Assembly: GCA_039583875.1 (NCBI GenBank)
Contig: CM077150.1
Location: 174,973,499-175,037,498 of the forward strand
Source of the DNA: Platanthera guangdongensis
Lineage: Eukaryota > Streptophyta > Magnoliopsida > Asparagales > Orchidaceae
Length of the DNA: 64,000 nt
Direction of reading: 5' to 3'
Shown: in pieces, positions 2,784-52,995 of the stretch
How the letters are laid out: each line of letters starts with the position of its first letter
Position numbering within the stretch: position 1 is the stretch's first letter
The notes under the pieces: model-generated
The model's database searches: none
What the model was told of the DNA's origin: nothing
The model's input: only the letters and a program-made list of their open reading frames with translations
Position numbers and translations under genes: made by a program

Positions 2784-2875
2784 CTATAGGAGTATATAAG
2801 CAACTAAGGAACTAACAAAACAAAAACTATAACCATTCTAGTAAACAAAACTTTCACGCTAGGAAAACAACTAAC
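2784..2875 (-). other. Gyp1 candidate spliced intron at the gag/protease junction (92 bp)
   Basis: Minus-strand boundaries are ATCTCAG|GTTAGT and CCTATAG|GGAAA. Removal joins the gag frame (ending TQVIS) to the protease frame (KFKVKNRW) within a single Gly codon, phase 1. The first in-frame intron codon is a stop (TAG), so an unspliced message would end Gag here. Gyp2 and Gyp6 have intervals of 91 and 95 bp at the equivalent codon. Inferred from sequence, not from transcripts. Confidence 0.65.
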
Positions 2876-4096
2876 CTGAGATGACCTGAGTCGAAGTTTG
2901 AGCATCCTCGGAAGAGATTACGTTCAGCTTTCCTTTGACCTTGTCCACACGCTAAGGAGGAGGTAATGCCTGAAGTGGATCTGCTTGAAGAACAGGATGG
3001 ACCTGAGGACACCTTGTCTTGATATGGCCCTTCTGTCCACACTGATAGCAGACTTTATCCATGGAGCAACACTGGGCAGCATCATGCCCGGGTCGCTTGC
3101 AAATAGAACAGGAAACATCCTTCCTAGAAGCACCTTGAATTGCATGAACATGCTCCTTCTTCTGAGCACCCGCCTTCTTGAAACAACTCTCAACAGGGTG
3201 GCCTGGCCGGCCACAGAAACTACACACTACCTTGCTCTTCTTTCCCGAAGCATCACCGGGTACCTGGGGGTTCTTCTGTTCAGCAGACTTCCTCTTGTCC
3301 TTCCTCATTTGCTGGCCTCTATTCTTTGCGGTCTCAATTGCATCCACTTTCAGAGTAGCCTCCACTACCCCTGCATAAGTCTCTGATCCATATGCATTGG
3401 CCAACTGCTGATCCTCGCTCCTCAAGACAGCGAGGAACTGCTTGACTCGATCAGCTTGAATACTCACCAACCCAGGGGAAAACCGGCTCAACTTGCTAAA
3501 CTCTATCTCGTACTCACTAACCATGACTTGCCTCTACTTTAGGTGGAGGAAGTCGTTCATTAGTCGGTCACGCTAGACCGAAGGCAAGAATCCTCAACAA
3601 CATCTCCTTGAAAAATCCACAAGAGCAACCAGCTACCAAACTCTCATTTTCCCTAAGCCACCAGCTCTTAGGAAAACCCTTTAGCTGATAGGCGGCTATC
3701 ATCACTCTCTGATCATCTGCAATATCGGATTATGTGAACATCTCCTCCATGGAGATCAGCCAATCATCTATGACCATGAAATCTGCCTTCTCATCATATG
3801 TAGGAGGTATAAGTCTCTGAAATTGCGATATAAAGGCCATCTCTACTACACCACCACTGGAGGTCTTAGGGGAGTAGGAGGGGGAGGAGCAGCTAACCCC
3901 CTGCAGGGTCTTGCACTCCCTGAGTCTGTCCTGCCACAACTGCCACCAGAGACTGGATCTGGGCATGCATCTCCACCAACTGCCTGGTCGAGGAATCGTT
4001 GCTCTGTCGCGGGCTATAGATCACCGTATCACTCTGTGCTCCTGAAGACTCACCCTCAGACAGGGGAGTAGACCTAGTCGAAGGACGTCTCGCCAT
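2876..4096 (-). pseudogene. Gyp1 gag with three CCHC zinc knuckles
   Basis: Gag is the particle protein that packages element RNA. The start ATG at 4096 opens with a basic N-terminus (MARRPSTRSTP). The capsid-like region (FISQFQRLIPPTYDEKAD, then LKGFPKSWW and the reading from 3524) is split by frameshifts and stops near 3730 and 3525. The C-terminal part has three CX2CX4HX4C knuckles in a row: CSFCGRPGHPVESC, CSICKRPGHDAAQC and CYQCGQKGHIKTRC. One premature TAG at 2952-2954 interrupts the tail before the junction intron. Unlike Gyp6, the start codon lies in the internal region rather than in the LTR. Confidence 0.85.
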
Positions 4097-4409
4097 CCTA
4101 AAACCATAAAAACTGAGATCGAAACTTAGTACAACAGTTAGAACAAACTACCAGTACAGACAATACATACATAAATATGAACTTTTAACTGCTATACTTG
4201 CTCTGGGATTTTATTTTATTTTTACAAAAGTGATGTTATGCTTAACCTAGGATAGTTTACCACCATCAACTAACTCTTGTGCCTAGATCCGGAATGCATG
4301 AATTTATATTTTTTTCTGATTTAAACCCATGTGTGTACATATATCATCCTGCAAATCTTTAGCTTGGCACGTTGTGCTTATGCAATGTTATGTTATGCAA
4401 GATTGTGCT

Positions 4410-4637
4410 ATGCATTATAAAAAGGCCCTAATGCATGTTATGAGTGGCGTACGCATGAAAATGTTATGCATCCCATTCTACATAACATTCTCATGCAATG
4501 AAAAAGAAACGTGGTAGTCGCATTCATGTGGTGAGGTTATGAATCCCATAGTACATAACCCTCACATGTTGCACCTATGGTGGATCCATATACAAACACA
4601 TATTATTCATCCCATACTACATAATATGCCCCGTATA
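4410..4637 (-). other. Stem-loop cluster in the Gyp1 leader RNA
   Basis: Read on the plus strand, inverted repeats are: 4410-4436 (ATGCATTA / TAATGCAT); 4453-4496 (GCATGA and ATGTTATG / CATAACAT and TCATGC); 4525-4568 (CATGTG and GGTTATG / CATAACC and CACATG); 4589-4637 (TATAC and CATATTAT / ATAATATG and GTATA). The last three share a loop close to ATCCCATNNTA while the stem bases change in pairs. Spacing is about 70 bp. Structured RNA near the primer site could act in packaging or translation (inference). Confidence 0.5.
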
Positions 4638-4777
4638 CTTCATGTTATGCTATGAGTGTAGTCTTCGTGCTTCAGCCAAGACGTGTTGATGACATATCGG
4701 TATGTGTATGATATAATGCTAAACATCTAATACCTACAAGGAACGGTTGCCCGACAAATTGTCAAGCAACCTCCCTT

Positions 4778-9785: not shown

Positions 9786-9790
9786 GTGAT
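9786..9790 (+). repeat. Cop1 target-site duplication, left (GTGAT)
   Basis: GTGAT precedes the left LTR and is repeated exactly at 22512-22516 after the right LTR, proving that 9791-22511 inserted as one unit. Confidence 0.95.
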
Positions 9791-9935
9791 TGTTGGGTAC
9801 ATTGGAATAAATGTACCTGATTTGAAGAAGCCTCACCCTACTCAATGATATACATCAAAATGTATTTGATGTGTTTTGAGTTTAGTTATGCAGGTTAAGT
9901 ATTTGCAGGGAAATCTGAAAGGTTTCTAAGTCCAT

Positions 9936-10751
9936 GTGTCGACACCGAGAAGAAAAATGTCGACACTTAAGAAGACTTGTGTCGACACCCAGAGAAGCAG
10001 TGTCGACACTTGGAGTAATTGTGTCGACACCAGGGATGCAGAGTCGACACCAGAAGGAAAGTGTCGACATATACAGGCTGTGTCGACAATCAATGAAGAA
10101 ATGTCCAGAGAAGCTGTGTCGACACTTAGAAGCAGTGTCGACACCCAAAGGAACTTTGTCGACATCAGAAAGAGTCGACACTTGGAGGATGTGTCGACAC
10201 TCAGCAAACTTCAACAGAGTCTAAGGACAAGTGTCGACATAATAAAGAATGTGTTGACACTCAGCAGAAGACTCAACACATGAAGAAAGTGTCGACACTA
10301 GGAGGCTGTGTCGACACTCAGTAAATTTCAACAAATTCTAAGTACAAGTGTCGACACAAAGGAGATGTGTCGACACTCAGCCAAAGTCTCAACACAAGAA
10401 GAATGTGTCGACATAAGGAGCTGTGTCGACACTCAGCAAGTATCAACACAGAAGGCATGTGTCGACACAAAGAAGATGTGTCGACACTGAACAAGTTCAA
10501 CACAAGAAGATGTGTCAACACAAAGGAGTTGTGTCGACACTTACAAGAAATCAACTAAGTACTGAAGAACAAGGAGTTGTGTCGACACACAATATCAGTG
10601 TCGACACATGTTGAAGAAGCTGTGTCGAGAAGTAATTTCTACAACACAAGGAGTTGTGTCGACACCATGAAGGCTAGTGTCGACACTTAGTGTACTTGTG
10701 TTGACACTTAGACTATAAGTGTTGACACTTAAAGACATACTGTCTCGACAC
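9936..10751. repeat. GTGTCGACAC palindrome array, 5' LTR copy
   Basis: About 33 exact or near copies of the 10-bp perfect palindrome GTGTCGACAC occur every 18-35 bp, with A/G-rich spacers such as TCAGCAAG or AGGAGCT. Variant copies are mainly GTGTTGACAC and GTGTCAACAC, the two products of cytosine deamination at the central CpG. The array ends about 135 bp before the TATA box, a position suited to upstream promoter elements. Confidence 0.95.
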
Positions 10752-10885
10752 TTTCAGACAGTTACAAATATTTCAAGAAGTGACTGGATGACTTCACAGC
10801 TGCCAATCCAGCCGGTCTACTGCAACTGTCAGAGATGTCAGAAAGTCGTTAGAAACCAGATCAGCCGGTCACCATGAAGAAAGTC

Positions 10886-10893
10886 TATATAAA
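10886..10893 (+). promoter_or_regulatory. TATA box of the Cop1 LTR
   Basis: TATATAAA stands between the palindrome array and the R/U5 region; the 3' LTR has the same box at 21670-21677. The transcript should start about 30 bp downstream. Confidence 0.75.
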
Positions 10894-11216
10894 GGCTTAT
10901 ACATTCAACAGATAATCAGTTGTTGGAAATCACCAAAGTGATCAAGTAATTCATTGAAGATTCAATTCAAGTGAAGATCTAAGTAGTTGGAGAGAGAGAG
11001 CTCCTTCCAAGAAGACAGCTGTTGAACCAGGATGTGAAGAAGGGTTCAGATTGAGATCTGAATCTTAAGTTGCAGTGATTGAAGATCAGCTGCATAAAGA
11101 ATCAACCCTACTGTGTTCTACATTCAAGAAGCTTTGAAGGAAGCCAAGGGAGGTTGATCTCAGCAGACTTCTTCCAAGAACTCATCAAGAAACCTGTCAA
11201 CTCTTATCTCTTATTC

Positions 11217-11480
11217 TGAGTTGTAGGTATATATATTGTATTCTTAATTTCTTGTAGGATCCTTAGGGATCTGAGTTGTAAGCCTGAAATTATAAAGGCT
11301 GAGTGGTAGGGCCTGTGTGCTTGAGTGTAGGAGATTCATTTCTCTGAGTGTAGGCCTTGTGGCTGAGTGTATGTCTTTGTGAAGACTGAGTGGTAGGGCT
11401 GTTGAGCCTGAGTTGTAGGAGTGGGATCACTCTGAGCTGTAGGAACCTGGTTGGGGTTCTGAGTGTAAGATCTGAGGATC
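11217..11480 (+). repeat. TGAGTGTAGG-type tandem array in R/U5 of Cop1
   Basis: About ten degenerate copies of CTGAGT(G/T)GTAGG occur at 20-30 bp intervals. It lies downstream of the TATA box and therefore in transcribed RNA. The 3' LTR copy is at about 22005-22262. Function unknown; RNA-end or polyadenylation signals are one possibility. Confidence 0.8.
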
Positions 11481-11730
11481 TGAGGAATAGTGGAGGAGTT
11501 TGGCCGAATCTAGTACACTACTAGATAGGCGAAGGGGGAAAGTGGATGTACCCAAATCTTGGGGAACCACTATAAAACTGTGTGTACTCTGTGTATGTGA
11601 TTGATGCTGTGTATGATGTTTATAGTTCTGTGAAATATGTGATATAATCTGCCTAAAAGTTTAAAAAGATTAAGTCACCTATTCACCCCCCCCCCCTCCT
11701 CTAGGTGATTAGGTACTATTGCTTTTCAAG

Positions 11731-11741
11731 TATTATCAGAG
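11731..11741 (+). other. Cop1 primer binding site (degenerate)
   Basis: TATTATCAGAG begins two bases after the LTR end and resembles TGGTATCAGAG, the initiator Met-tRNA complement, with mismatches at its start. Bases 11742-11839 are short leader before gag with nothing else notable. Confidence 0.6.
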
Positions 11742-11839
11742 GGAGGTTACTCAAAAAGGACATAACTGTCTGAATAGATCCTGTTGGCAGATTTAGTGAA
11801 ATTAAGGACCGATTCAGCATAATCAAGAAAATCAAGAAA

Positions 11840-13849
11840 ATGGGTTCAATAGAGAGTCATAAAGAACTTGGATCCATGAAGTTGCCAATTTGCAGAAAGG
11901 AGATTTTTGGCATCTGGAAAGAAAGGGTTAGACTGTTTATGGAAGCCTCTGACCCTAGAATCTATATCACAGTCAAAGAAGGGTCATATGTGCCAATGAA
12001 AGTATCTGTGTTAGATGCAAATCAGAGAACTCCAAAAGACTTTTCTGAAATGTCCAATGATGAGATTATTCTGGCTACAATGGACAAAAGGGCTCAGAAT
12101 ATCATTGTAAGTGCAATAGATGATGCTACATTTCAGAACTTGATACACTGTAAAACATCAAAGGAGATGTGGGATACTCTGATAGTGTACATGGAGGGTT
12201 CAGAAGAAGTTAGACAGGACAAAAAGTCTTTGTTAAACCAAGAGTATGAGAGCTTCATACAAGGAAGGTCTGATAGCATAACTGAGTGCTACAAGAAATT
12301 CTATAGGATAGTTAATGAGTTAATGTCCTATGGAAGAGAATTCAGCAATTATGAGCTGAATGATAAGTTTTTGAGGTCCCTAACAAAGGACTGGGACACC
12401 AAGATTTGTGTCATAAGGGAAATGGCCAAGATAGCAGATATTCCTCCTTCAACATTGTTTGGAAAGCTGTTATCCTATGAAATGCAGCTAATGGTTAGGA
12501 AAGAGGAGGAGAAGACTACCAGATTTGAGCATAAAGAAAGAGCAGTGGCATTCAAGACAGAAGCCACCAAGAAATATAAAAGTAAGTCTCCATCTCCACC
12601 TCCAAAAGTAGTTGAGACTGGGTCAGATAAATCAGAAATCAGGAATTCTGAAAGCAGTGAGAGTGATGAGGACTTTGCAGCTTTCACAAGACATTTTCAG
12701 AAGTTCCTAAAGAAGAAACAGTGGAGGTCTAAGCCATCCACTTCACAGAAGTATTCAATGAATGACAGGAGAAATCTCAAGTCAAGTAGAACTACATCTT
12801 CAAAGATAGTCTATTATTGTTGTAACAAACAAGGACATGTTGTTGCTGACTATCCTGAGAAGAGGAAAGAGTCAACTGATAAGAAGAAGACTCAAATCAA
12901 AGGGAAGAAGGAAAAGTCCTTTGTGGCAAGGAAGGACAAAAGTCTGTCAGATACGTCTTCTTCAGAAACTGATTCAGAAGCTGAGGCCTACATTGGACTG
13001 TTTGCTGAAGAAGAGGAAGAGGAGTTTATCCAGTTAATGAACTCTATATATGAGCAAGAGGACAATCAGTGCCAGGGACTGATGGCCTTATCTGAAGGTG
13101 ATAAAATCCAGGATCAGACTGGACCTAGTCAGGTACAAAATTGTTCTTCAAGTTCAGTTTCTTGTGCTGGTACAGAATCAGATTCATCAGCATCAAGTGA
13201 TGAGAGTGAATCTAAATCTGAAGGAGATATTCATCAATTGATTGATGAATATAGAGTAGTGTTGCAAGCTTTGAAGAAAAGCAAATCCTTGGCCAAGAGT
13301 CAGGCTAAGGAGATTGTCAGTCTCAAAGTTGCTGCAACAGATTTTGATAAGTTGATTGATCAAAAACTAAATGAAATAGACAGGCTGAAGAACATAACTG
13401 TTATTCCGATGGGGACTATTACATTCAAGAATGATCAAATCAGAAATCTAGAGATTAGTCTTCAGAAGGAGAGAGATATAGTTGCAAGGTTTTCTAAACC
13501 AAAATCTATTTTACCTTTGATAGATGAATTTGTACATCAAAAGGGTAAAACTGGATTAGGGTTTAAACAACCTGCTAGAACTGTAAAGTTCGATTCTAAG
13601 GGCAAAGCCCCAGCACTCAACAAGCCTGTTGTAGATAAAACAGTTAGGGTTGTACCTAAGCAAAGGTACAATAGATTTGAGTGCTGGTGTTGTGGCAAGG
13701 TGGGCCACTTTGCCATGGACTGTTGGCACAATTCAAGTGCCAAAGTGAGTAGCAATCTGCCTGTTAGAAAAGCTACAGATAGTTATGTTAAGAGGCAAAC
13801 TAACCAGCACCAAGCACCCAAGAATTCTTTGGGTTCTAAGGTTAACTAA
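11840..13849 (+). CDS. Cop1 gag
   Basis: An intact 669-residue reading for the copia particle protein. The N-terminal capsid region (residues 1-220) includes FGIWKERVRLFMEASDPRIY and MWDTLIVYMEGSEEVRQDKK, typical of SIRE-like Gag. Two zinc knuckles follow: the first (near residue 328, YCCNKQGHVVADY) has lost two Cys to Tyr, the second (CWCCGKVGHFAMDC, near 613) is intact. Between them lie acidic and Ser-rich stretches and a probable coiled coil around 470-545. The start sits 111 bp after the LTR. The stop TAA (13847-13849) is in the same frame as pol. Confidence 0.92.
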   Translation: MGSIESHKELGSMKLPICRKEIFGIWKERVRLFMEASDPRIYITVKEGSYVPMKVSVLDANQRTPKDFSEMSNDEIILATMDKRAQNIIVSAIDDATFQNLIHCKTSKEMWDTLIVYMEGSEEVRQDKKSLLNQEYESFIQGRSDSITECYKKFYRIVNELMSYGREFSNYELNDKFLRSLTKDWDTKICVIREMAKIADIPPSTLFGKLLSYEMQLMVRKEEEKTTRFEHKERAVAFKTEATKKYKSKSPSPPPKVVETGSDKSEIRNSESSESDEDFAAFTRHFQKFLKKKQWRSKPSTSQKYSMNDRRNLKSSRTTSSKIVYYCCNKQGHVVADYPEKRKESTDKKKTQIKGKKEKSFVARKDKSLSDTSSSETDSEAEAYIGLFAEEEEEEFIQLMNSIYEQEDNQCQGLMALSEGDKIQDQTGPSQVQNCSSSSVSCAGTESDSSASSDESESKSEGDIHQLIDEYRVVLQALKKSKSLAKSQAKEIVSLKVAATDFDKLIDQKLNEIDRLKNITVIPMGTITFKNDQIRNLEISLQKERDIVARFSKPKSILPLIDEFVHQKGKTGLGFKQPARTVKFDSKGKAPALNKPVVDKTVRVVPKQRYNRFECWCCGKVGHFAMDCWHNSSAKVSSNLPVRKATDSYVKRQTNQHQAPKNSLGSKVN

Positions 13850-13861
13850 TCTGTTTTGCAG
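13745..13861 (+). other. Cop1 candidate in-frame intron spanning the gag stop codon (117 bp)
   Basis: A strong donor CCAAA|GTGAGT and acceptor TCTGTTTTGCAG|GTG, with a branch-like CTAAT, bound 117 bp, exactly 39 codons, phase 0 at both ends. Removal deletes the gag stop and fuses gag to protease in frame. Cop4 has a matching TAATCTGTTTCTTTGCAG|GTG at its gag/pol border (acceptor at 38704), although its donor is unclear. Splicing is inferred, not shown. Confidence 0.45.
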
Positions 13862-16800
13862 GTGAGTCCAAGTGACCATGCCCCAATATGGTACTTGTAC
13901 AGTGGATGTTCCAGGCACATGACTGGATCTAGGGGATTGCTAAAGGACTACACACCAATCAAGGATGGTCCTAAAGTCACCTTTGGTGGTTCTGAAAAAG
14001 GAATCATCAAAGGTTTTGGTAACATTTCTAGCAACCTTATAACAATTACTCAAGTGGCTTATGTTAAAGGTTTGAAACATAACCTTATTAGTATAAGTCA
14101 GCTGAGTGATTTAGGATATGACATCTCATTTGTCAAAGATGGTTGTCATATCAGGAGATCAAATGATCAAGAAATCATTCTGACTGGTTATAGAAAGAGA
14201 AATGTCTATTGTCTAGACATTATGTATGAGAACAATGTTTCTCCAGTGTGTCTTGTAGCTGATGAGAAAGTCTCTCATTGTGTCAAATGGCACAAGAGAC
14301 TAGCCCATCTTAACTACAAGACAATTGGCCAACTCTATAGCAAAGAGTTAGTGAGGAATGGTCCTCAGGTTAAGTGTATTAAAGATGGGATATGCTCAGC
14401 TTGTCAAAAGGGCAAGCAGACTAGATCCACCTTTAATAGCATTGAAAATAAAGATGCTGTGAGGTGCTTATACCTCTTGCATATGGAACTCTTTGGTCCT
14501 ATGCCAGTTCACAGCCTAGGTAGGAAGGTCTACACATTTGTAGTTGTAGATGATTACTCAAGGTTTTCCTGGGTGTTCTTGCTTAGACAGAAATCTAAAA
14601 CACCTAGTATCTTCTATAGTTTTGTCAATTAAATTCAGAATGATTTAGACAGTACAGTGGTCAAAATAAGAAGTGACCATGGTACTAAATTCCAGTCTGA
14701 CAATATGATAAAGCTATGTGAAGAATTTGGGATATTTCAGGAATTTTCTTCACCAAGAACACCTCAGCAAAATGGCATTGCTGAGAGGAAAAATAGAACC
14801 TTGATTGAGGCTGGTAGAACCCTATTAAGTGACACATCTCTCGCAGAATATTTCTGGGCTGAGGCAGTAAACACTGCATGCCATGTAATTAATAGGGCTA
14901 CTATCACCAAAAGGCACAACAAGACCCCCTATAAGATTGTGAAAGGCAGAAAACCAAACCTATCATATTTCAGGATCTTTGGTTGTAAATGCTATATACT
15001 TAACAATGGTAAGTCTTACTTAACCAAGTTTGCTGCCAAATCCCAAGAGGGGATCTTTGTTAGGTATAGCAACAATAGTAAGGCTTATAGGGTCTACAAC
15101 TTGACTACTCAAGTTGTAGAAGAGTCAGTACATGTAGTATTTGATGAAGCTAGACTCATTAACAATGAATTATCTAGAAGTATTTGCAGCTCTACAGGTG
15201 TGACTAAGAAGATGGACAAGCTCACTATTGAAGAAGGATCTACTGCAAGTCAGCATGTAGATGATAGTGGCTGCTGTCCAGGGGGAGTACTAGATGCACC
15301 TGATGCAGAAGAAGACCAAGGAGTGCAGCAAGTTGAAGAAGCTGAAGGAGTTCAACCTGAAGCCAGGCTGCCTCCAGCTAATAGACATCTAAAAGATCAT
15401 CCAGCCAATCAAATTATTGGTGATCTAAGTCAAGGGGTACAAACAAGGAGCAGAAATCAAAGTTCAGTACTCTACTCCAGTTTTCTATCACAAGTAGAGC
15501 CAAAGAAATTTGAAGAAGCCATCCTAGACCCTCATTGGATTGTGGCAATGCAAGAGGAGCTGAATCAGTTCAAGAGATGCAAAGTCTGGGAGCTTGTTCC
15601 TAAACCAAAAGACCACAACATAATTGGAACTAAGTGGATCTTCAGGAACAAGATGGATGAACATGGAGTCATTATAAAGAACAAAGCAAGACTGGTTGCT
15701 AAGGGATATAGGCAGGAAGAAGGTATTGACTTGGATCAAACCTTTGCTCCAGTAGCCAGATTGGAGGCAATAAGGATGTTCTTGGCCTATGCACCCTATC
15801 AAGGGTTTAAAGTATACCAAATGGATGTTAAGTCAGCATTTCTGAATGGAAATCTGAAGCAAGAAGTCTATGTGGAACAGCCATCAGGTTTTGTTGATTC
15901 AACTCAACCTAATTATGTCTATAGACTTAGGAAGTCTTTGTATGGGTTAAAACAAGCCCCTGGGGTTGGTATGAAACCCTGTCTAGTTTCCTCATTGAGA
16001 ATAAATTCACAAGGGGGGGATAGACAAGACTCTATTCCTTAGGGAATCCAGAGACAAGATCATTCTAGTCCAAATATATGTAGATGACATCATATTTGGG
16101 TCTACAGAGAATAGTCTTTGCAGAAAGTTTGCAAAACTTATGCAAGGACAGTTTGAAATGAGCAGTATGGGGGAACTTAAGTTCTTCTTGGGTCTCCAAG
16201 TTAGACAGACTGAGAATGGTTTATCCATATGCCATTCTAAGTTCACCCTAGAATTAATAAGGAAATATGGTATGGAATCATCCAGTACCATGAAAACTCC
16301 TATGGGGTCAAGTATGTCTCTTAGCAAAGATGATGCAGGGAAACCTGTAGATGAGACTTTGTATAGATGAATAGTTGGATCCCTATTGTATTTGACTGCA
16401 AGTAGACCATATATCATGTATGCTACATGTGTCTGTGCTAGGTACCAAGCATGCCCTAAAGAATCTCATTTGACAGCGGTCAAAAGAATTCTGAGATATC
16501 TAAAGGGCACTCCTTATCTAGGACTTTGGTACCCTAGGAATAGAGACTTTGAACTGACAGGTTATTCAGATGCAAATTTTGCAGGATGCAAAGAAGATAG
16601 GAAAAGTACAACTGGTACCTGTCAATTCCTAGGTGGAAGACTGATTTCATGGAGTAGCAAGAATCAAACAAGTGTGGCTATCTCCACAGCAGAATCAGAG
16701 TATGTGGCTGCAGGAAGTTGTTGTGCTCAACTTCTATGGATACAACATCAGCTTGAAGATTATGGTATTCAAGTAAGTAGAACACCACTATTTTGTGAGT

Positions 16801-17021
16801 CTACCAGTGCTATATCTATTGCAAACAATCCTGTTTCCCATAGTAGGACTAAGCACATAGAAATAAAATATCATTTTCTAAGAGAACATGTGGAAAAAGG
16901 AAATATTTCACTAGAGTATGTTAATACAGATAATCAACTAGCTGACATGTATACTAAGCCATTAGAAGAAACCAAATTCAATAGGTTTAAAATTGAATTA
17001 GGTATGATAAACTTAGAATAA
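13850..17021 (+). pseudogene. Cop1 pol: protease, integrase, reverse transcriptase, RNase H
   Basis: Copia-order polyprotein. Protease reads WYLYSGCSRHMTG, with Tyr replacing the catalytic Asp (codon 13898-13900). Integrase has a zinc domain (HKRLAHLN, CSACQKGKQ), a first catalytic position reading MELFGPM (Glu for Asp), then [10 protein letters not shown] and [13 protein letters not shown]. Reverse transcriptase shows [31 protein letters not shown] and YVDDIIFGS. RNase H has DRKSTTGTCQFLGG and AISTAESEYVAA, and the C-terminus ends near LADMYTKPLEE. Breaks: a TAA at 14630, a +1 shift near 15960-15970 and a TGA near 16368. Two substituted catalytic residues make this copy inactive even apart from the breaks. 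Confidence 0.93.
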
Positions 17022-17047
17022 GTTTTCAAAATTGGCTAAGTAAAAAG

Positions 17048-17310
17048 GTGTCGACACACAGAGTTGTCTGTGTCGACACAGAAAAGTGGTGTCGAAACTT
17101 TAGAGAAAAGGTGTCGACACATCTAGGAAGTTGGTGTCGACACTTCATAGAATTTGTGTCGACACATGCAGGGTAGGTGTCGACACATCTAAGGTGGTGT
17201 AGATACATCAACAAGTGTCGACACATATATTCTGTCGACTATACTTGTGTCGACACATAGTTGTCGAGACATTATAAGTCTGTGTCGACACTTATCAACA
17301 GTGTCGTCAC
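17048..17310. repeat. Second GTGTCGACAC array, inside Cop1 before the third ORF
   Basis: About 14 exact or degenerate copies of GTGTCGACAC begin 27 bp after the pol stop, with two more at 17380 and 17418. Flanks differ from the LTR array (for example GGTGTCGACACATC), so it is not a simple copy of it. It is followed by a TATA box, repeating the LTR promoter layout. Confidence 0.9.
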
Positions 17311-17356
17311 AATTTAAGTATTTTGACGCCCCCTTTCATCTTCGATCCTAGAAAGG

Positions 17357-17364
17357 TATAAATA
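17357..17364 (+). promoter_or_regulatory. Candidate internal TATA box for the Cop1 third ORF
   Basis: TATAAATA (in AAAGGTATAAATATT) lies 47 bp after the internal array and 107 bp before the ATG at 17464. No ATG intervenes between the expected start site (about 17390) and 17464. The combination suggests a separate promoter (inference). Confidence 0.55.
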
Positions 17365-17463
17365 TTATTTCGCCATTGTCTGTCGACACACTCACCAAAG
17401 TTTCGAGACCAAACTTGTGTGTCGACATCTCTCTTCTCTCAATTCAAATTTCTTCAAACCCTA

Positions 17464-18504
17464 ATGGCGCCCAAGCTCGAAGAGAATGTGAATGAAGGTT
17501 ATGAACTCGTGCGGCATGCTTTTGATGACGCGAAACCAGATATCAAAGGCATGATAACCCTAATCGCAGAGACTGGATTAGACTTTCTTGTTTCAGAACC
17601 GACCAAGATATGGAAGAAGGAAGTCCTGGAATTCCTGAATGGAGCAACAATAGATGAATATGGACTCAAGATAAAGTCTAGAGTTCATGGGGCTAAAGTG
17701 AAAGTTTCTTCTAAGAGTCTGAGAAAGGTACTACAACTACCAAGTACAAAGGAAGAAGATGATGTTTCTGCTTCTAAAACTAGGGAAGCATTGACATGGT
17801 GTGGACTGGACTCCAATCTGAAAATAGGATCTGTTTTCAATAAGAAGGGAATGAACATGCAAGGCAAATTTCTATCTGAAATTGTTGGCAAGGTTATCTT
17901 AAGCAAGCCTGGCGGCCATGACAGAGTCTCAGCTCACATGTTTAGCCTCATGATAAGGATTATCTTCAAACTACAAACTGATGGGTCTGCAGTAGTGTTT
18001 GAGAAGATAAAAGAGAGTATGAAGAAGCCCAATTTGGGTAGGATTCTAAGTCTTTATCTGGCTGGTAGTATACCAGAGGTCATGAATCAAGCAGCTGGAA
18101 CTAAGATTAACCACATGAGGAGAATGGATTTGAGAATTTTCTCTAGGTGGGATATAGTCTTGACCAAGGAAATGCCAACTCCTGAGAAGGAAACACCCCT
18201 GAAGAAGAAGAAGAAGACAGCCCCAGTGGCTCAAGAATCCTCTAGCAGCTCTGAGGAGCAAGTTGTCTTTACTCCTGATAAGGAAGCAACTGGAAATGCT
18301 GGCCAATCACCTACAAGACAAGAAGATGCAGAGAGGCAGGGGGAGCTACCACAAGCAAGCCCAAATCACCAGGATTCCATGCAGGGGGAGCCCTTACTTG
18401 TGGAAGAACCAACTCCACTTGAGAGTGAACAGGCTACCCACACAATACTTGAGGTAATCACTGAAATCAACCAATTAGATTTCTCTATTGAAATGAAGAT
18501 ATGA
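17464..18504 (+). CDS. Cop1 third ORF, N-terminal part (unknown function)
   Basis: 346 residues from the first ATG after the internal TATA box (MAPKLEENVNEGYEL). The N-terminal 200 residues look globular. The pattern IWKKEVLEFLNGATI followed by SRVHGAKVKVSSKSLRKVLQL resembles the conserved core of proteins annotated as putative plant transposon protein and of extra ORFs in SIRE-like elements. Residues 250-346 are low-complexity, rich in Lys, Ser, Glu and Pro (KKKKKTAPVAQESSSSSEEQ). I see no signal peptide or clear membrane segment, so the env-like label often used for this position is not supported. The reading stops at 18504 and continues in another frame. Confidence 0.75.
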   Translation: MAPKLEENVNEGYELVRHAFDDAKPDIKGMITLIAETGLDFLVSEPTKIWKKEVLEFLNGATIDEYGLKIKSRVHGAKVKVSSKSLRKVLQLPSTKEEDDVSASKTREALTWCGLDSNLKIGSVFNKKGMNMQGKFLSEIVGKVILSKPGGHDRVSAHMFSLMIRIIFKLQTDGSAVVFEKIKESMKKPNLGRILSLYLAGSIPEVMNQAAGTKINHMRRMDLRIFSRWDIVLTKEMPTPEKETPLKKKKKTAPVAQESSSSSEEQVVFTPDKEATGNAGQSPTRQEDAERQGELPQASPNHQDSMQGEPLLVEEPTPLESEQATHTILEVITEINQLDFSIEMKI

Positions 18505-23669: not shown

Positions 23670-24781
23670 GTCGCTGCGCCGTAAAATGTGGTTCCTCCCC
23701 CTCCAACTACCACTCCATTTCTACATATAGAGATGGGTCAAACTTTGACGGCTATCCTGAAAGCCTTCAAAGCCCAGCAGGTCCCAGCTCCGCAGCCAAA
23801 TCAAGGGTCAAGCTGGTTGAGTGCCTTCAAGAGCGTGTAACCACCGATGTACCGTGGGACAGAGGATGCTATGAAGACTGAGGAATGGCTGGAGGCCATA
23901 CATGAGATAATGGCAGGTATTAGCTGCCCGGTCGGCCAGGCAGTTCCTCTAGCTACCTCTGCTTTAGAAGCTCATGCAAAAATATGGTGGAAGTCCATGC
24001 GAGAGTCCACTTATGCTGACTGGGAGCTATCGGACATATCTTGGGAGGAGTTCGGCAAAGTATTATTAGATCAATTCGTATCCAGCACAGTCAGAGATGT
24101 ACTGGAGGGGAGGTTTTTGAACCTCAGGCAGGGAGTAGATCGGTGATTGAATACCAGAGGGAGTTTTCCCACCGTGCCAGGTTCGCAGGGATACATGATA
24201 CAGACGACAGGAGGTATGCCAAGAGATTCTACTGGGGCCTTAGAGACGACTTGATGCAGGCCCTACTGTTTATTTCTCACAGCACATCAGCCCAGATCAT
24301 CGAGATGGCCAAAAAGCTAGAGGCAGACCAGCTGATGGTGTAGAATAGAGGAAAGAGGCCGCTGGATGGGTCATCACCCGAGGAGAGTAGTAGGGGATCC
24401 CAGTGAGGTAGAGTCATTTGATATAAGAGGTGTGGGGGACGTCCTCATCCCAACTTCAGGCAGGAGCAGGGGCCTCGTCCAGCATTAGCTCCCGCACCAC
24501 TACAGGTGCATATTCCGAGGAGACAAGATGAGCATGGCCACCAGCCGGTAGTTTGTTAAGGATGCCACCAGCCCGGGCATATTAGATCGGAGTGTCCGCA
24601 TCAGTTCCGTCCACCTCCTCGTCCTCCACCTCCAGTGGCCCCTCAGTACAGCAGGGCTGAGGCCGAGGCCGAGGACGAGGTCGAGGCCGAGGCCGGGGAT
24701 ATCACGGCCGAGGACGTAACCAGTAGCAGATGTATGCATTGGACCTCACGCAGCAAAGGAACCCCGAGGAAGTGATTACAG
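23670..24781 (+). pseudogene. Gyp2 gag (decayed)
   Basis: A Ty3 Gag relic in the same family as Gyp6. MGQTLTAILKAFKAQQ (from 23733) aligns with LGQTLTAILDAFKAQQ of Gyp6, and TEEWLEAIHEIMAGI with TEEWLDTIQELLVGI. The capsid region (IWWKSMRE, YQREFSHRARFAG, KRFYWGLRDDL) spans 23847-24343 across a frameshift near 24140. The zinc knuckle near 24550-24595 keeps CHQPGHIRSEC but has a stop inside its first Cys pair. The tail MHALDLTQQRNPEEVITG ends at the junction intron. The exon before 23733 contains a TAA. Confidence 0.85.
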
Positions 24782-24872
24782 GTACTTAAATTAATTTAAT
24801 TTTGAACTTCAACCTTAGTAGTGCCTTGAAAACCATATAAATAACCTCCATTTTAATCCAAATAAATCTCAG
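24782..24872 (+). other. Gyp2 candidate intron at the gag/protease junction (91 bp)
   Basis: GATTACAG|GTACTTAA to AAATCTCAG|GCATGG, phase 1 in a Gly codon, with an in-frame TAA at intron bases 6-8. Position, phase and size match Gyp1 (92 bp) and Gyp6 (95 bp). About 106 bp of following sequence (24873-24978) should be protease but is not recognisable. Confidence 0.6.
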
Positions 24873-26237
24873 GCATGGAGACTCCTATGTCACTATTGAA
24901 GGTATCTGACCTATCCCCCATCTTTCATTATCTTCTGTACAGGCAATCAAGGCATATGAGCAGGGGGAAGAGGTGTACTGTAACATCCCCATCCGTCGCG
25001 TGGCATATAACTGAAGGTCCAGCTAGAACCCGACGCCATATACCACAGACAGTCGGAAGGGTTACATAAGAATATTCAAACTATCTAATTAAGACTACTC
25101 GTCCTACATAGAGCATTCTAGCGGAAGCTTTTAAAAGTTGAAAGAACCCAAAACTTAAATCCAATAATCATGAATGTCCACAACCACACCACTGGAATGA
25201 AAACCAAATAAACTGAAAGGGTACACGGCCTTATGGCCTTACAAATATTCACATAACAAATAGTGTCTTACATACATCGGCTCGCAGGCCGGCCACACAT
25301 GATAAAATAAAAACAACTATTATTTACGCCCTTCGAGGGCCAGCATAGCAACATTGATTCCAGCCCGCTATCTAGCACTCGGCTCCGCAGCACCTGTAAG
25401 CAACATTCCATTTCATGTTGGCAAAATAAAGCAACGATCAGCCAAAGCCGACCAAATTATAACGACCCCGCCCCTTACTCGGGACGCAGGTGCTCTTTCC
25501 CTACATATCATTAGCCCAGTAAAACAATAAAATGCAATTATACTACGCCACAGGTGTAGGCTCGCACGGCCAAACACCGCGTGCACTCAGGGCACATTAA
25601 CGGTGAATACTGACACTTCAGCGTCTTCACCACCATCCCAAAGATGGCAACCACGTGAGCATTTAGCCTTTCTCACCACTGTCTAAGGCTCCCGACTATG
25701 GCAACAGCCAGTCCCATTTTCGGGTCTCTCGCACCGAACCACATAGCCTAGGTCCAATTCCACTTGCCGTTGCTCACACCATGTAGTCACTTTAAGACGT
25801 ACGCACGAGCAAAGCTTCTCTCGGATCCCAAAACTTTTCCAAACAATCACATAACCCAGTTATGTTCAAGGCCGGTTCCCTGACCACCAAGTTAGAAGAA
25901 CACGTTTCTGCTCAGTTTTTCAGGTGCGACTTGGAGTTAATCCCCAAGGATCCCTGGTGCAATCTACCGCATAGAAACCCTAAAAACCCAAAGCACGAAG
26001 TCTTCTCCATCAAAACATATCAAATGCAACATCACCGATCCAGACAATACTTGTCCGAGTAGGTTTCACACACAATGCCTATGCTCGTACTTCGATTCCG
26101 GACTCTATATGCAACATAAAGGGGGACTATTCACATCAACCCCGAGGAACACCACGCACTCACCGCACACTCGCGGGAGAGGGTTTCCCTATGCAAAAAG
26201 GAAGAGAGCTTCACATGCTCAAGTAGAGAATCGTTAC

Positions 26238-38400: not shown

Positions 38401-38409
38401 ATCTGAAGA

Positions 38410-40948: not shown

Positions 40949-40950
40949 AT

Positions 40951-48258: not shown

Positions 48259-48263
48259 GATTG
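48259..48263 (+). repeat. Gyp6 target-site duplication, left (GATTG)
   Basis: GATTG recurs exactly at 59454-59458, just outside the right LTR. Confidence 0.95.
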
Positions 48264-48393
48264 TGTAACGTCCCGAATCGCTCTAGGCCCCTAGTGTGTG
48301 TGTTTTGAGTCAGGAGGGTTGACTCGAGTCCTGAGAAGTGCAGGGAATTGGGCTGCGCTTGTGGAGAAGGGGAGAAATCAGTGCAGAGAGAAG

Positions 48394-48938
48394 TGACACG
48401 GGTAGAGACATGGCCGTGTCCCTACCCGTGTGCATCGAGATGATCTCGACGAGCCGTGTCGAGATCGTCGAGAATCGTCGAGAGTCGTCGAGATCAAGTG
48501 ACACGGGTAGTGACACGGCCGTGTCCCTACCCGTGTGCGTCGAGATGATCTCGACGAGCCGTGTCGAGACCGTCGAGAGTCGTCGAGATCGTGACACGGG
48601 TAGTGACACGGCCGTGTCCCTACCCGTGTGCGTCGAGATGATCTCGACGAGGCGTGTCGAGATCGTCGAGCGGGGTCGACACTAAGTGACACGGGTAGTG
48701 ACACGGGCGTGTCCCTACCCGTGTGCGTCGAGTTGAGCTCGACGAGAAGTGGCGAGATGTAACTGAAGATGCACACGGCCAATGACACGGCCAGGCACAC
48801 GGCCGTGTCATGTGAACACGGGTTGGGACACGGGCGTGTCCCGACCCGTGTCAAACACTGAACCGACATGGAAACTGTCGTTGCCGTTTCGCCAGGCAGG
48901 ACACGGGTAAGGACACGGCCGTGTCCCTACCCGTGTCA
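48394..48938. repeat. Large ACACGGCCGTGT palindrome array, Gyp6 5' LTR
   Basis: Six units at 48394, 48500, 48593, 48687, about 48815 and 48900 have the form GACACGGGTAGTGACACGG followed by its reverse complement, nearly perfect palindromes of 36-38 bp. Between them lie CGTCGAGATGATCTCGACG palindromes and GTGTCGAGATCGTCGAG. The last unit ends 8 bp before the TATA box. The right LTR copy is at 56255-56799. Confidence 0.95.
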
Positions 48939-48945
48939 CATTTTG

Positions 48946-48953
48946 CATATAAG
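48946..48953 (+). promoter_or_regulatory. TATA box of the Gyp6 LTR
   Basis: CATATAAG immediately follows the palindrome array (right LTR: 56807-56814). A start near 48978 would give a leader of about 105 nt with no ATG before 49083. Confidence 0.75.
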
Positions 48954-49082
48954 GGGCAGAGAAACCCTAGCCGTTTTTCACTCTCATTTCCTTTCCCTAT
49001 TTCCTGTGAGAGCTCCTGGTGAGAGGGAAACTGCAGGAGCAAGTTTTACCGAAGGAGATCCGCCATCGCCGCGAGAGAGAAG

Positions 49083-49142
49083 ATGCCGCCAAGGAGAACT
49101 ACGCGATCCATGGCCGGAAATGGTGGTACCGCTGGAGTCAAC
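49083..49142 (+). CDS. Gyp6 LTR-encoded gag mini-exon
   Basis: Twenty codons, MPPRRTTRSMAGNGGTAGVN, run from the first ATG downstream of the TATA box to a consensus donor AAC|GTGAGT, phase 0. The acceptor GTGTAG|GTTCCA at 51786/51787 opens, in phase, seven codons ahead of the ATG at 51808 of the gag reading. The removed interval (49143-51786, 2644 bp) contains the rest of the LTR, the primer site and the leader, so a spliced message could only be a translation template and not a genome. The right LTR has the same exon near 56944-57003. Inferred from sequence, not transcripts. Confidence 0.6.
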
Positions 49143-51592
49143 GTGAGTTTCCTACCCTCTCCCTTGGTGCTAGATCTTAGATATTTAGGAGAGACATCGG
49201 TTCAAGAGAACTTGATGGAGAGGAGAAGATTTCTAGGTTTGGCCATGCTAGGATTTGAATCCTAGATTTTAGATCTCTTCAACCCTTCCCCTTTTCTTCA
49301 ATATGACGACGGGTGGATGGTCTCGTGAGGAGTTTATGGCCTTTGAGGTTGAATAAGGGAGGAGAATAATTCTGGAAAATTTAGGAACGATCGCCTTGAC
49401 GAGGAAGACGAACCGATGCCGTTCATTTTCCTTTAAGATGCGCGCAGAATCTGTATTCTGCGCGCAGCGATCTTCTAGGCCCTTTTTATGTAGGATATGT
49501 GCAGATCTGGGCTTTTGGCCAAACACGAAAGTTGTAGCCCTTGGAAATACCTTTCCAACGAGTGGTTGCACGACTTCAAGTGATGTCTGTGGCCCCGGGA
49601 AAACCAAATCGAGTTTGCTGTCCGGCAATTCCTGTACACAGAAATTGTGTTCTGTGCGCAGTGAACTTTGAAGCCGATTTCGAGTAAGTTATTTTCAGAT
49701 CTGGGTTGTGACCTGAATATGAAAGTTGTAGATCATGAAAAGATCTTTCCAACGAGGGGTTACACGACTTCACCGGATTCTTGTAGCCTCGGGAATCTCC
49801 GGTCGAAATTGCTGTCCAGATTAGTGATACACTTAGAATTCTGGTTTTATATAAAGTGCAACAAGAGTCGGTGGAATTCTGTCAAGATTAAATAATTGAT
49901 GCTAATCACCGAAGAACTTTGAATGATGGTGTTTATTATTTAGAATGCATACAACTGATTTACTATTGCAAGTTGTCTTGAGATTTGGATGGTTTCCTTT
50001 ATGTTTAATTGAATCGAATTGATAAGATGTTGATAGATTATAACATATACGCATCATATAAGTCTTATGTAGAGTTCGTATGGAATGACATATAGAAGAT
50101 TAAACTATGACCATGATATGTTGATTTGGTGAAATGAAATTTATTAGTCCAATACTTAGAGCGTCGTCTCCCTACGGGTAGTATTGTGGAAGAATGAAAG
50201 TGCGGTGTTGACCGTCACTTGTTTTGTTGTGTTGAGATAGGTGTGGATGGATGGTTGGGCTGTGTCCTCGTGTTTACTTCCGAGGCCCCTTCCATGATAT
50301 GTTGATATGGTATTTGCATGTGGTGTGAGTCGACACGCGGTGTCGTAATCCTGGGTTAAGGATAGTGTGGCAGGTCTACGGGCTCGCCAGTCGTCACACC
50401 GACGGGAGTTGGCAGTTAGACTTGGTCGGTTTGGGCTGTGTCCTCGGTGTTCACGTCACGAGGCCCCTCCGACCATGTGAAGGGTTGGGCTGTGTCCTCG
50501 TGCTTTCTTCCGAGGCCCCTTCCGGGTCACACAAGGCCAGTTCGGGCTGTGTTCTTGGTGCACATCTACCCAAGACCCCGCTGGGCCATAGTACGCATGG
50601 GCTCCGCTGTTGTGTTCCTAGCGTTGAGGCGTACGGAGGCCTAGGTGAAGTAGTGTGATACCCGCCTAGTAGTAGAAGTGCCCGTTCTACTGTCACCGCC
50701 TGGCCACGGCGGCTGATGCCTGAGAGGTTAGCTACCTGCTCGAAAAGTGGGAACTATAGTCTGTGTCGACATAGCAGTTGCATGGGTGTGCATGGGTGAG
50801 TCATTGCATAGCATTCATAGCATTCATAACATTGCACAACAAGATCCTCATCGTATAAGTTTGTATGGGCACTCTTATACGATGAGTTACTTTTATGTAA
50901 CCCGATCCTTAACTTATAAGTTTGTATGGGCATTCTTATAAGTTAAGTTACTTCCTGCTCTTACTTATACTTGCTAGTTTACTTGTAGCTCTTATATAAA
51001 TGCTGATAGTGATACTGTTTCTCTTACTCTACTGCCACCTGTTTGTACCTGTCATACACTTATAAATATTGTACCCTTGTTTCTCTTTCTCCGCCCGGTG
51101 CCGAGGAGTCGCCGGGGGAGCGGATGTGAAACCACTTAGTCGTTTCGACTAACGGTTGCTACGTCTTCCTTTTTAGGAGGTCACGCCGCAGGTAGAGCAG
51201 CCGCAGACTACGCAGCAGGACAGCCAGGCCAGGACGACAGGGCCTGATGTGACGGTGCCGTCGATACCGTCTGTTACTGATGTTAGTATTTTTATTACTC
51301 TGATGTAGCCCGTTTGGGCAATGATTAGCTGTACTCTGATATTTTGTAGAAGCATGTTTTAGCTTCTCATTATTGATGTTTTGGACTTTATATACTTAGT
51401 GTGGATTTTGACTTCTCTTGCTTATTTATTTGGTTGGGTTGGCATGATATATTGATATGGTTTTAGCCGGCGGAATAGGCGTCTTGTGGTACAGGTTAGC
51501 CCGTGTGCTAATGCTACCGCAAGGCGGCTGTTCCGGGCATAAGACTCCCCCTTCGTGCCGTGTTTTGGGATCCGGGTAGGGGGGGTCTTACA

Positions 51593-51786
51593 AATGGTAT
51601 CAGTTTGCCACGCTCCTCAACTAAGAAGTCATTCAACAATGGTGCCACCCCCGTTTGATTAGTCAGTTTGGGGACAAACTGACTTAGCGGAAGCAGTGGT
51701 GTGCCCATATGTAATTCACATTAAGTTTGTCCAACTTTGACCTTAAGTTTAGCCAACCTGACCACAAATTTGTCGTGTACGTGTAG
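51593..51786 (+). other. Gyp6 primer site and leader with conserved hairpin
   Basis: TGGTATCAG (51595-51603) matches initiator Met-tRNA. A hairpin at 51661-51684 has 10-bp arms AGTCAGTTTG/CAAACTGACT and the loop GGGA. The 23-nt block 51686-51708 is identical in Gyp2. Both are candidates for RNA packaging or dimerisation signals. A pyrimidine-poor acceptor GTACGTGTAG ends the leader. Confidence 0.65.
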
Positions 51787-51807
51787 GTTCCACTGCATGT
51801 TGAGCCG

Positions 51808-52911
51808 ATGAGGGGTACTCCTACCCCTCCCATACCCACTCAGTTCCAACAGTCTGAGTTGGGGCAAACACTCACCGCCATTCTTGATGCTTTTAAGGCA
51901 CAGCAGGCTCCGGTGCAACAACAGGCCCCGAGCTCCAACTGGCTGAGCACCTTCCGAGCTCTCTCCCCTCCCGTCTACCTTGGGACGGAGTCAGCCGTAC
52001 GTACAGAGGAATGGCTAGACACGATACAAGAGTTGTTGGTTGGTATCCGTTGCCCGGCCAACATGGCAGTAACATTGGCAGTGTCCGTCTTGGACTTACA
52101 TGCGAAGAGGTGGTGGAAGTCCCTCATGGGCTCTACCTTCCAAGGCCGGATCTACACTGAGATAAGTTGGAGTGAATTTTCGGAGGTTTTCTTGGAGCAC
52201 TTTATCCCTACATCGGCCCGAGATGAGCTTGAGCAGAGGTTCCTTCTACTAAAGCAGGGATCAAAGTCGGTTACAGAATACCAGCGGGAATTCCAGCATC
52301 TCGCAAGGTTTGCGGACTCTTATGAGTTGGATGACAGAGGTTATGCCAAGCGCTTCTATAAAGGGCTGCAAGATCCCCTAAGGCAGTCCCTTTTGTTTAT
52401 AGCGGATGGTAGCTTGGCGGAGATCATTGATATGGCGAAAAGATTGGAGGCGGACCACCTGGGATGTAGTAAGAGGCCTGCGGAGGACGTAATGGAAGCC
52501 GGCCCAAGTAATAGAAGGAGACGGGACTTCAGAGGAGGAAGAGGTTATCAAAGAGGTGGAGGGCGTGTCCACCGAAACTATAGGGTGGAGCATCCAGTTC
52601 CGCAGCCGCCTGCGTTGCCTCCACCCCCACAGCCTCAGCGATTTCAACAACCTGAAGGGCGTCGTGGTCTGGTGTGCTTCGAATGCAACCAGCCGGGCCA
52701 CATCCGGCGTTTCTGCCCGCAGCTATATGGGAACGCCCCTCTTGCTCTCCCTCCTGCTCTCCCTCCAGCAGCTCCACGAGGGCGGGGATACATGCGTGGT
52801 CGAGGACGAGGACCGCCAAGAGGTAACCCCGGCCCTGCTAGGGATCAGGTGTACGCGCTTGACATGGCACAGGAACGGAACCCACAAGATGTGATTGCAG
52901 GTATGATTTAA
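51808..52911 (+). CDS. Gyp6 gag
   Basis: A 367-residue open reading; the coding frame is open upstream to the acceptor at 51787, and with the LTR mini-exon Gag would gain 27 residues. Capsid region: LGQTLTAILDAFKAQQ, TEEWLDTIQELLVGI, KRWWKSLMGSTF, SVTEYQREFQHLARFA, AKRFYKGLQDPLRQSLLF. An Arg/Gly-rich stretch (RRRDFRGGRGYQRGGGR) follows, then one intact zinc knuckle CFECNQPGHIRRFC and a second RGRG-rich tail. The frame reaches the junction donor at 52901; if unspliced, translation ends four codons later at TAA (52909-52911). Cytoplasmic particle protein. Confidence 0.93.
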   Translation: MRGTPTPPIPTQFQQSELGQTLTAILDAFKAQQAPVQQQAPSSNWLSTFRALSPPVYLGTESAVRTEEWLDTIQELLVGIRCPANMAVTLAVSVLDLHAKRWWKSLMGSTFQGRIYTEISWSEFSEVFLEHFIPTSARDELEQRFLLLKQGSKSVTEYQREFQHLARFADSYELDDRGYAKRFYKGLQDPLRQSLLFIADGSLAEIIDMAKRLEADHLGCSKRPAEDVMEAGPSNRRRRDFRGGRGYQRGGGRVHRNYRVEHPVPQPPALPPPPQPQRFQQPEGRRGLVCFECNQPGHIRRFCPQLYGNAPLALPPALPPAAPRGRGYMRGRGRGPPRGNPGPARDQVYALDMAQERNPQDVIAGMI

Positions 52912-52995
52912 TTAGTTTACATACTTGCATGGTTTAACATGAATTGCTTAGAACTTATTAGACACTAGCAATAAGTTTTGGTCGTTGGCACTTAG
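52901..52995 (+). other. Gyp6 candidate intron at the gag/protease junction (95 bp)
   Basis: GTGATTGCAG|GTATGA to GGCACTTAG|GCACC, phase 1 within a Gly codon. Splicing turns QDVIAG directly into [10 protein letters not shown] of the protease. An in-frame TAA lies at intron bases 9-11. Same codon, phase and size class as in Gyp1 and Gyp2. Confidence 0.7.

What the first reader, a model, noticed from the sequence alone, without database searches (positions are those of the whole stretch)
2784..52995. Conserved phase-1 intron with an immediate stop at the gag/protease junction of three divergent Ty3 elements
Gyp1 (2784-2875, 92 bp), Gyp2 (24782-24872, 91 bp) and Gyp6 (52901-52995, 95 bp) each have GT...AG boundaries in the same Gly codon at the end of gag (VISG, VITG, VIAG), phase 1. 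In each, the retained frame meets a stop within 11 nt of the donor (TAG, TAA, TAA). Intron retention would give Gag alone and splicing Gag-Pol, so splicing rather than frameshifting could set the Gag:Pol ratio. The intron survives transposition only if unspliced RNA is the reverse-transcription template. Known plant precedents (Ogre intron between protease and RT, BARE spliced gag RNA) are at other places or work the other way. I do not know whether this junction intron has been described.
Basis: partly seen in the sequence, partly recalled or inferred. Interest (0 to 1): 0.87.

Follow-up and report, generated by a model that had tools for sequence, protein, structure and literature searches.

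The report
Intron between retrotransposon Gag and protease
Two distantly related plant jumping genes carry what looks like a short intron at the same point between the shell-protein and enzyme genes, so that splicing could decide how much of each protein is made, but no RNA evidence could be examined here.

Summary
The junction insert is real in two of the three elements. In Gyp6 (52901-52995) and Gyp1 (2875-2784, minus strand) a GT...AG stretch of 95 and 92 nt splits the same Gly codon, phase 1, between Gag and protease (PR). Three relatives, found as eukaryote-like contigs in bacterial assemblies, read continuously through this point. Both inserts are the most GC-poor and T-rich stretches of the coding regions examined, and GT...AG ends arise in about 1% of shuffled inserts each. 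The Gag frame stops 11 or 5 nt into the insert; the PR frame opens 50-59 nt further on in another frame, so a simple frameshift or readthrough would not give Gag-Pol. Gyp6 LTRs are 99.4% identical, so it moved recently with the insert present.

The third case fails: Gyp2 has the donor, but its claimed acceptor is coding sequence (NLRHGDS) beyond a deleted protease.

Best reading: a retained spliceosomal intron; unspliced RNA makes Gag and is the template, spliced RNA makes Gag-Pol. Splicing and ratio control are inferred: no transcripts or further genomic copies could be searched. In what I read, Ogre's intron lies between PR and RT, and in BARE1/EVD splicing makes Gag. New variant of a known kind.

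The parts
48264..51592 (+). Gyp6 5' LTR (3329 bp); GATTG at 48259-48263 is the 5' copy of the target-site duplication
   Evidence: self-BLAST 48259-51599 to 56121-59460 at 99.37% identity; LTR ends and GATTG read
51595..51603 (+). Gyp6 putative primer-binding site TGGTATCAG (initiator tRNA-Met motif, recalled)
51808..52911 (+). Gyp6 gag reading frame from its first Met to the TAA that ends 11 nt inside the insert; Retrotrans_gag and zinc knuckle
   Evidence: (Retrotrans_gag E 1.9e-18)
52901..52995 (+). Gyp6 putative phase-1 intron, 95 nt, CAG|GTATGA...GCACTTAG|GC, 31.6% GC, 38.9% T
52962..54581 (+). Gyp6 protease - RT - start of RNase H reading frame; homology to relatives begins at the acceptor, 52996; DTG active site at 53037; first Met of this frame only at 53148
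54413..56035 (+). Gyp6 later pol frame: integrase, Tf2-type SH3, chromodomain-like end; reached only by a frame change within RNase H, so this copy is broken there
56125..59453 (+). Gyp6 3' LTR (3329 bp); GATTG at 59454-59458 is the 3' copy of the duplication
2784..2875 (-). Gyp1 putative phase-1 intron, 92 nt, CAG|GTTAGT...CCTATAG|GG, 30.4% GC, 50% T; Gag-frame TAG ends 5 nt in
2876..3831 (-). Gyp1 gag remains (tblastn pieces 3831-3658, 3644-3477, 3053-2958), ending in VIS-G
1228..2783 (-). Gyp1 protease-RT-RNase H; a stop follows DSGATH in the protease, so this copy is decayed
23718..24781 (+). Gyp2 gag remains, ending in VIT-G
24782..24858 (+). Gyp2 AT-rich stretch (77 nt) that starts with the donor GTACTTAA and runs straight into the PR-RT linker; acceptor and protease are missing
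24859..24978 (+).

Best explanation
Gyp6 and Gyp1 are plant chromovirus-type Ty3 elements that carry a short, U-rich spliceosomal intron at the gag/protease junction. RNA that keeps the intron is translated to Gag only, because the Gag frame stops within four codons, and it is also the RNA that is packaged and reverse transcribed, which is why the intron persists in DNA copies. RNA that loses the intron joins the Gag frame to the protease frame and gives Gag-Pol. The efficiency of splicing would therefore set the Gag to Gag-Pol ratio. Shown here: the insert, its exact position, phase, composition and frame relations, and its presence in a copy with near-identical LTRs. Inferred: that it is spliced, that splicing is partial, and that this sets the ratio.
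For: Same residue and phase in two elements whose PR-RT is 45% identical. Three relatives are continuous at exactly this point: VVLG|TLLVN, VIFG|TFLVN, VVIG|MFSIN. Both inserts are composition outliers: 0 of 3944 (Gyp6) and 0 of 2614 (Gyp1) other windows as low in GC, none as high in T; the experimentally spliced 104-nt BARE1 intron is also U-rich (PMC3735527, section 11 read). GT...AG ends in about 1% of shuffled inserts each. The Gag stop and the opening of the PR frame are 50 nt (Gyp6) and 59 nt (Gyp1) apart, in different frames, and both insert lengths are 2 mod 3, so a simple -1/+1 frameshift or stop readthrough does not bridge them; the first PR-frame Met in Gyp6 lies past the active site. 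Gyp6 PR-RT is one open frame and its LTRs are 99.37% identical. Gyp2 keeps a donor at the same residue.
Against: No transcript was seen. Gyp6 is itself broken in RNase H and Gyp1 and Gyp2 are decayed, so activity rests on the LTR identity. The Gyp1 and Gyp6 inserts show no similarity above shuffles (195 of 500 score as high). The RT tree (7 sequences, 173 columns) does not unite Gyp1 and Gyp6 (forced together: AU p 0.0485, SH p 0.0735), and the integrase tree places Gyp6 with Gyp3, away from Gyp1 and the contig sequences, with 97% support, so common origin of the intron is uncertain. Other GT...AG pairs of 60 nt or more also join the two frames in the stretch examined (4 pairs in Gyp6 and 5 in Gyp1, these included), although only one in each falls at the conserved junction. 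In one relative, L005, the zinc knuckle and PR lie in different, overlapping frames with no insert like this one, so frame changes at this boundary have other solutions. [quoted passage not shown]
Confidence: 0.62

Rival explanations
1. It is a true intron but spliced efficiently, with no ratio function. Nearly all translated RNA is spliced and makes Gag-Pol only; the unspliced minority is the genome. The intron would separate translated RNA from packaged RNA rather than Gag from Pol.
For: All structural evidence for the intron fits equally. Distinct RNA pools for translation and replication are reported for BARE (PMC3735527, abstract start, passages). Three relatives without the insert have a single continuous Gag-PR frame at this point.
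Against: The Gag frame stops by nt 11 in all three elements, which happens in about 17 to 22% of shuffles each and about 0.7% jointly, slightly favouring a used Gag terminus. The acceptors CTTAG and CTATAG depart from the recalled TGCAG optimum, which would favour incomplete splicing (recalled, not scored).
Confidence: 0.25
2. The inserts are not used as introns; they are relics or unrelated insertions in non-autonomous copies that depend on proteins from other elements.
For: Gyp1, Gyp2 and Gyp6 carry other defects. No similarity between the Gyp1 and Gyp6 inserts above shuffles, and the two elements are not sisters in the small trees made.
Against: Unrelated insertions at one codon, in the same phase, with GT...AG ends, both GC-poor and T-rich, are improbable. 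Gag tail and PR head, read as separate pieces, abut at the residues that are adjacent in three relatives.
Confidence: 0.08
3. Gag-Pol is made by recoding across the gap: ribosome bypass, or a frameshift combined with readthrough.
For: Recoding is common in Ty3 elements generally (established knowledge), and L005 shows overlapping Gag and PR frames.
Against: Gap of 50 nt (Gyp6) and 59 nt (Gyp1) between the Gag stop and the opening of the PR frame, without overlap. The junction RNA of Gyp6 is not unusually structured (z -0.77; 51 of 200 shuffles fold as well).
Confidence: 0.05

Closest known systems
Ogre (Ty3/gypsy, Tat lineage)
   Same: Plant Ty3 element with an intron between coding frames; only part of the transcripts is spliced, which allows the whole polyprotein (PMC6317226, sections 9 and 13 read)
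   Different: [quoted passage not shown] here it lies between Gag and protease, is 92-95 nt, in a chromovirus-type element
BARE1 (Ty1/copia) facultative intron
   Same: Short (104 nt) U-rich GT...AG intron at the end of gag (PMC3735527, section 11 read)
   Different: Opposite logic: the unspliced BARE1 frame is open and splicing creates a stop, so spliced RNA gives Gag alone; here unspliced RNA would give Gag alone
EVD/EVADE shGAG (Ty1/copia, Arabidopsis)
   Same: Alternative splicing separates Gag from Gag-Pol production (PMC8892269 and PMC12786077, passages)
   Different: Spliced and prematurely terminated RNA makes Gag; unspliced RNA makes Gag-Pol; a copia element
Sunflower Tyran and Varan transcripts
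   Same: Plant LTR elements with unspliced and spliced RNAs that encode different proteins (PMC7730604, passages)
   Different: Short spliced, early-terminated isoforms encode truncated GAG; no gag/protease-junction intron is mentioned in the passages seen
CRR and Bagy2 (Ty3/gypsy)
   Same: Plant Ty3 elements with spliced transcripts (named in PMC3735527, passages)
   Different: CRR splicing removes RT and creates two ORFs; Bagy2 splicing gives an env RNA
Bianca (Ty1/copia)
   Same: Two ORFs separated by a spacer, on average 172 bp (PMC6317226 section 13)
   Different: Copia lineage; splicing is not stated in the section read

Membership tests
Plant chromovirus (Ty3/gypsy), Tekay-like | Ty3 domain order PR-RT-RH-INT | tested here: met
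   Pfam RVP_2, RVT_1, RNase H, Integrase_H2C2 and rve in that order in Gyp6; rve scores 32.1 bits, just under its 32.6 cut-off
Plant chromovirus (Ty3/gypsy), Tekay-like | Chromodomain at the C-terminus of integrase | tested here: inconclusive
   Pfam Chromo on the last 131 aa of Gyp6: E 1.5e-4, 22 bits, under the 25.1-bit cut-off
Plant chromovirus (Ty3/gypsy), Tekay-like | Primer-binding site for tRNA-Met, 5-bp target duplication | tested here: met
   TGGTATCAG after the 5' LTR and GATTG on both sides of Gyp6; the tRNA-Met assignment of this motif is recalled
Plant chromovirus (Ty3/gypsy), Tekay-like | Placement in the Tekay clade by an RT tree with named references | not tested
   No named reference elements were at hand; the trees hold only window and contig sequences
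Ogre | Intron between protease and RT | tested here: not met
   PR and RT share one open frame in Gyp6, 52962-54581; the insert is upstream of PR
BARE1/EVD-type gag splicing | Unspliced RNA encodes continuous Gag-Pol | tested here: not met
   The unspliced Gag frame stops at 52909-52911 and PR is in a different frame
Spliceosomal intron | GT...AG ends, AT/U-rich against exons, plausible length | tested here: met
   for Gyp1 and Gyp6; Gyp2 fails for want of an acceptor
Spliceosomal intron | Removal from RNA | not testable with these tools

The most novel reading that the evidence does not exclude
A lineage of plant Ty3 chromoviruses uses retention of a gag/protease-junction intron as its Gag to Gag-Pol switch, so that one unspliced RNA is both Gag message and genome and only spliced RNA makes the enzymes. 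The intron is old, kept in deeply separated lineages against the constant chance of loss by reverse transcription of spliced RNA, and has been lost in other lineages that went back to a single frame.
Probability: 0.4. Interest if true: 0.78.

Novelty: new variant of a known kind. Interest (0 to 1): 0.58.

Why it matters
LTR elements need far more Gag than Pol. The review passages that I saw name frameshifting and a short spliced GAG RNA as the two described strategies, and Ogre and EVADE as the notable intron-bearing plant elements (PMC12786077). A gag/protease intron with an early in-frame stop would be a third and simple answer, testable with ordinary RNA-seq. An intron that survives repeated passage through RNA would also imply that spliced RNA is kept out of reverse transcription.

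Tried and rejected
The Gyp2 acceptor was tested and rejected. Similarity between the insert sequences: none above shuffles for Gyp1 vs Gyp6 (195 of 500 as good) or Gyp1 vs Gyp2 (249 of 500), weak for Gyp2 vs Gyp6 (29 of 500). A recoding RNA structure at the Gyp6 junction: not supported. A 10-bp hairpin that would hide the Gyp6 donor: 52 of 400 shuffles give as long a stem. A single origin of the intron: the RT tree (7 sequences, 173 columns) puts Gyp1 with L002 (72% support), and joining Gyp1 with Gyp6 is at the edge of rejection (AU p 0.0485, SH p 0.0735); the integrase tree (7 sequences) separates Gyp6 and Gyp3 from Gyp1 and the contig sequences with 97% support. With so few and partly decayed sequences I draw no firm conclusion; old intron with losses and parallel gain both stay open.

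Searches with no use: viral contigs three times, 9, 1 and 180 pattern matches but 0 relatives; plasmids, 3 records with distant RT matches; Rfam, 0 matches; tRNA genes, 0.

Literature: ten searches (searches returned no paper) in the held open library. In the titles, abstract beginnings and passages that I saw, no gag/protease intron of a plant Ty3 element is described. I opened 7 papers, in passages or named sections only (PMC6317226, PMC7730604, PMC12786077, PMC3735527, PMC9289625, PMC8892269, PMC6875170); the other listed papers I saw only as listings. Subscription papers are mostly not held; the Ogre splicing paper PMC2596294 is not held.
Full report
What is there. The window looks like plant DNA (inferred from the element types) and is rich in LTR retrotransposons. 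Gyp6 is a Ty3-type element with LTRs 99.37% identical over about 3.3 kb, GATTG on both sides and a TGGTATCAG primer site, gag (Retrotrans_gag E 1.9e-18), PR-RT-RNase H, integrase and a weak chromodomain match. Its pol changes frame within RNase H, so this copy is broken. Gyp1 (minus strand) and Gyp2 are decayed relatives: Gyp6 PR-RT aligns to Gyp1 at 45% identity, and Gyp6 gag to Gyp2 at 53% and 48% over the two main pieces.

The junction. In Gyp6 the Gag frame ends NPQDVIA-G|GT ATG ATT TAA; the PR frame resumes after ...CACTTAG|GC as [21 protein letters not shown]. In Gyp1 Gag ends STQVIS-G|GT TAG and PR resumes after ...CCTATAG|GG as KFKVKNRWARVLLDSGATH. The inserts are 95 and 92 nt, both phase 1 and both 2 mod 3.

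The yardstick. A scan of prokaryote genome contigs returned 6 loci with relatives, most likely plant or other eukaryotic contamination (inference). I read 5 of the 6 upstream of PR; L006 holds only an RT piece. Three (L001, L002, L003) align clearly at the junction and are continuous: PNVVLG|TLLVN, DEVIFG|TFLVN, NDVVIG|MFSIN; L003 has a stop earlier in gag. L004 is continuous from its zinc knuckle into PR but too diverged to place the Gly. L005 has its zinc knuckle and PR in different, overlapping frames and no comparable insert. So the inserts of Gyp1 and Gyp6 sit exactly between two residues that are adjacent in three uninterrupted relatives.

Chance. No other non-overlapping window of equal length is as GC-poor or as T-rich (0 of 3944 in Gyp6 51808-56035, 0 of 2614 in Gyp1 3900-1012). 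Four placements of each insert give the same empty site, one of which is GT...AG; single-base shuffles of the insert reach that in 221 and 211 of 20000. Other GT...AG pairs could join the frames (4 pairs in Gyp6 and 5 in Gyp1, these included), but only one in each hits the conserved junction. The early stop alone is weak evidence: 17 to 22% of shuffles each, 0.7% for all three.

Correction of the third case. The protease is missing, and the proposed exon would be out of frame.

Why not recoding. The Gag stop and the opening of the PR frame are 50 nt (Gyp6) and 59 nt (Gyp1) apart with no overlap. The first PR-frame Met in Gyp6 (53148) lies past the active site (53037), so reinitiation there would lose the protease. 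The Gyp6 junction RNA is not unusually structured (z -0.77).

Mechanism. Most likely an intron with retention: unspliced RNA gives Gag and is the template, spliced RNA gives Gag-Pol. A copy with near-identical LTRs that still carries the insert fits an unspliced template. Splicing itself, its extent and the ratio function are inferred. The main rival is an efficiently spliced intron without a ratio function. The reported retention of unspliced RNA in the Arabidopsis nucleus (PMC8892269, passages) is a difficulty for the Gag part.

Origin. The two intron-bearing elements are not sisters in the small trees made here: the RT tree is weak (AU p 0.0485 against joining them), and the integrase tree sets Gyp6 with Gyp3 apart from Gyp1 and the contig sequences at 97% support. 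The insert sequences show no similarity. That fits an old intron with losses elsewhere, or two gains at one place; I cannot tell which.

Comparison. [quoted passage not shown] BARE1 has a 104-nt intron at the gag end whose removal makes a Gag-only RNA (PMC3735527, section 11 read); EVD works in a similar way (passages). The present case combines a BARE1-like place and size with an Ogre-like logic, in a chromovirus-type Ty3 element. Ten searches of the open library did not show it described; that library is incomplete.

Limits. No RNA, no further genomic copies (genome search did not complete in 17 calls), no protein database, no named reference elements for a clade assignment. The claim stands on two elements and on three clearly alignable intronless relatives.

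Noticed in passing
window 9788-22511: A Ty1/copia element with LTRs of about 1.94 kb at 97.2% identity. Its gag-pol frame is interrupted by single TAA codons at 13847-13849 and 14630-14632 in one continuing frame. Further ORFs follow pol at 17362-20306, one with a sub-cut-off match to Transposase_32.
   Followed up: partly
window 9936-10677, 17048-17282, 20720-21503: The palindromic 10-mer GTGTCGACAC occurs 54 times in the window: 19, 9 and 24 times in three clusters in the LTRs and post-pol region of the copia element, and at 31511 and 31613.
   Followed up: no
window 52896-52905 and 52920-52929: A 10-bp stem TGCAGGTATG/CATACTTGCA would hide the Gyp6 donor, but 52 of 400 shuffles give as long a stem; the longest donor stems in Gyp1 and Gyp2 are 7 bp.
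   Followed up: yes
L001 1206, L002 2285, L003 367: The intronless relatives encode the junction Gly as GGT followed by A (GGTAC, GGTAC, GGTAT), which resembles the donor itself; the donor may derive from this codon.
   Followed up: no
L005 1166-1506: In this Ty3 relative the zinc knuckle and the protease lie in different, overlapping frames, as if joined by frameshifting or split by a sequence error.
   Followed up: no
L001-L006: Contigs placed in bacterial assemblies carry Ty3 pol sequences (with gag in several) and look like eukaryotic contamination; L006 is a match inside a 1.16-Mb contig.
   Followed up: no
window 48391-48758 and 56252-56619: The Gyp6 LTRs hold a 95-bp tandem array (3.7 copies) that also forms inverted repeats.
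   Followed up: no
window 24979 onward: The Gyp2 PR-RT remnant breaks off at TGTAACATCCCC, which resembles the Gyp6 LTR start TGTAACGTCCCG; probably another LTR element nested in Gyp2.
   Followed up: no
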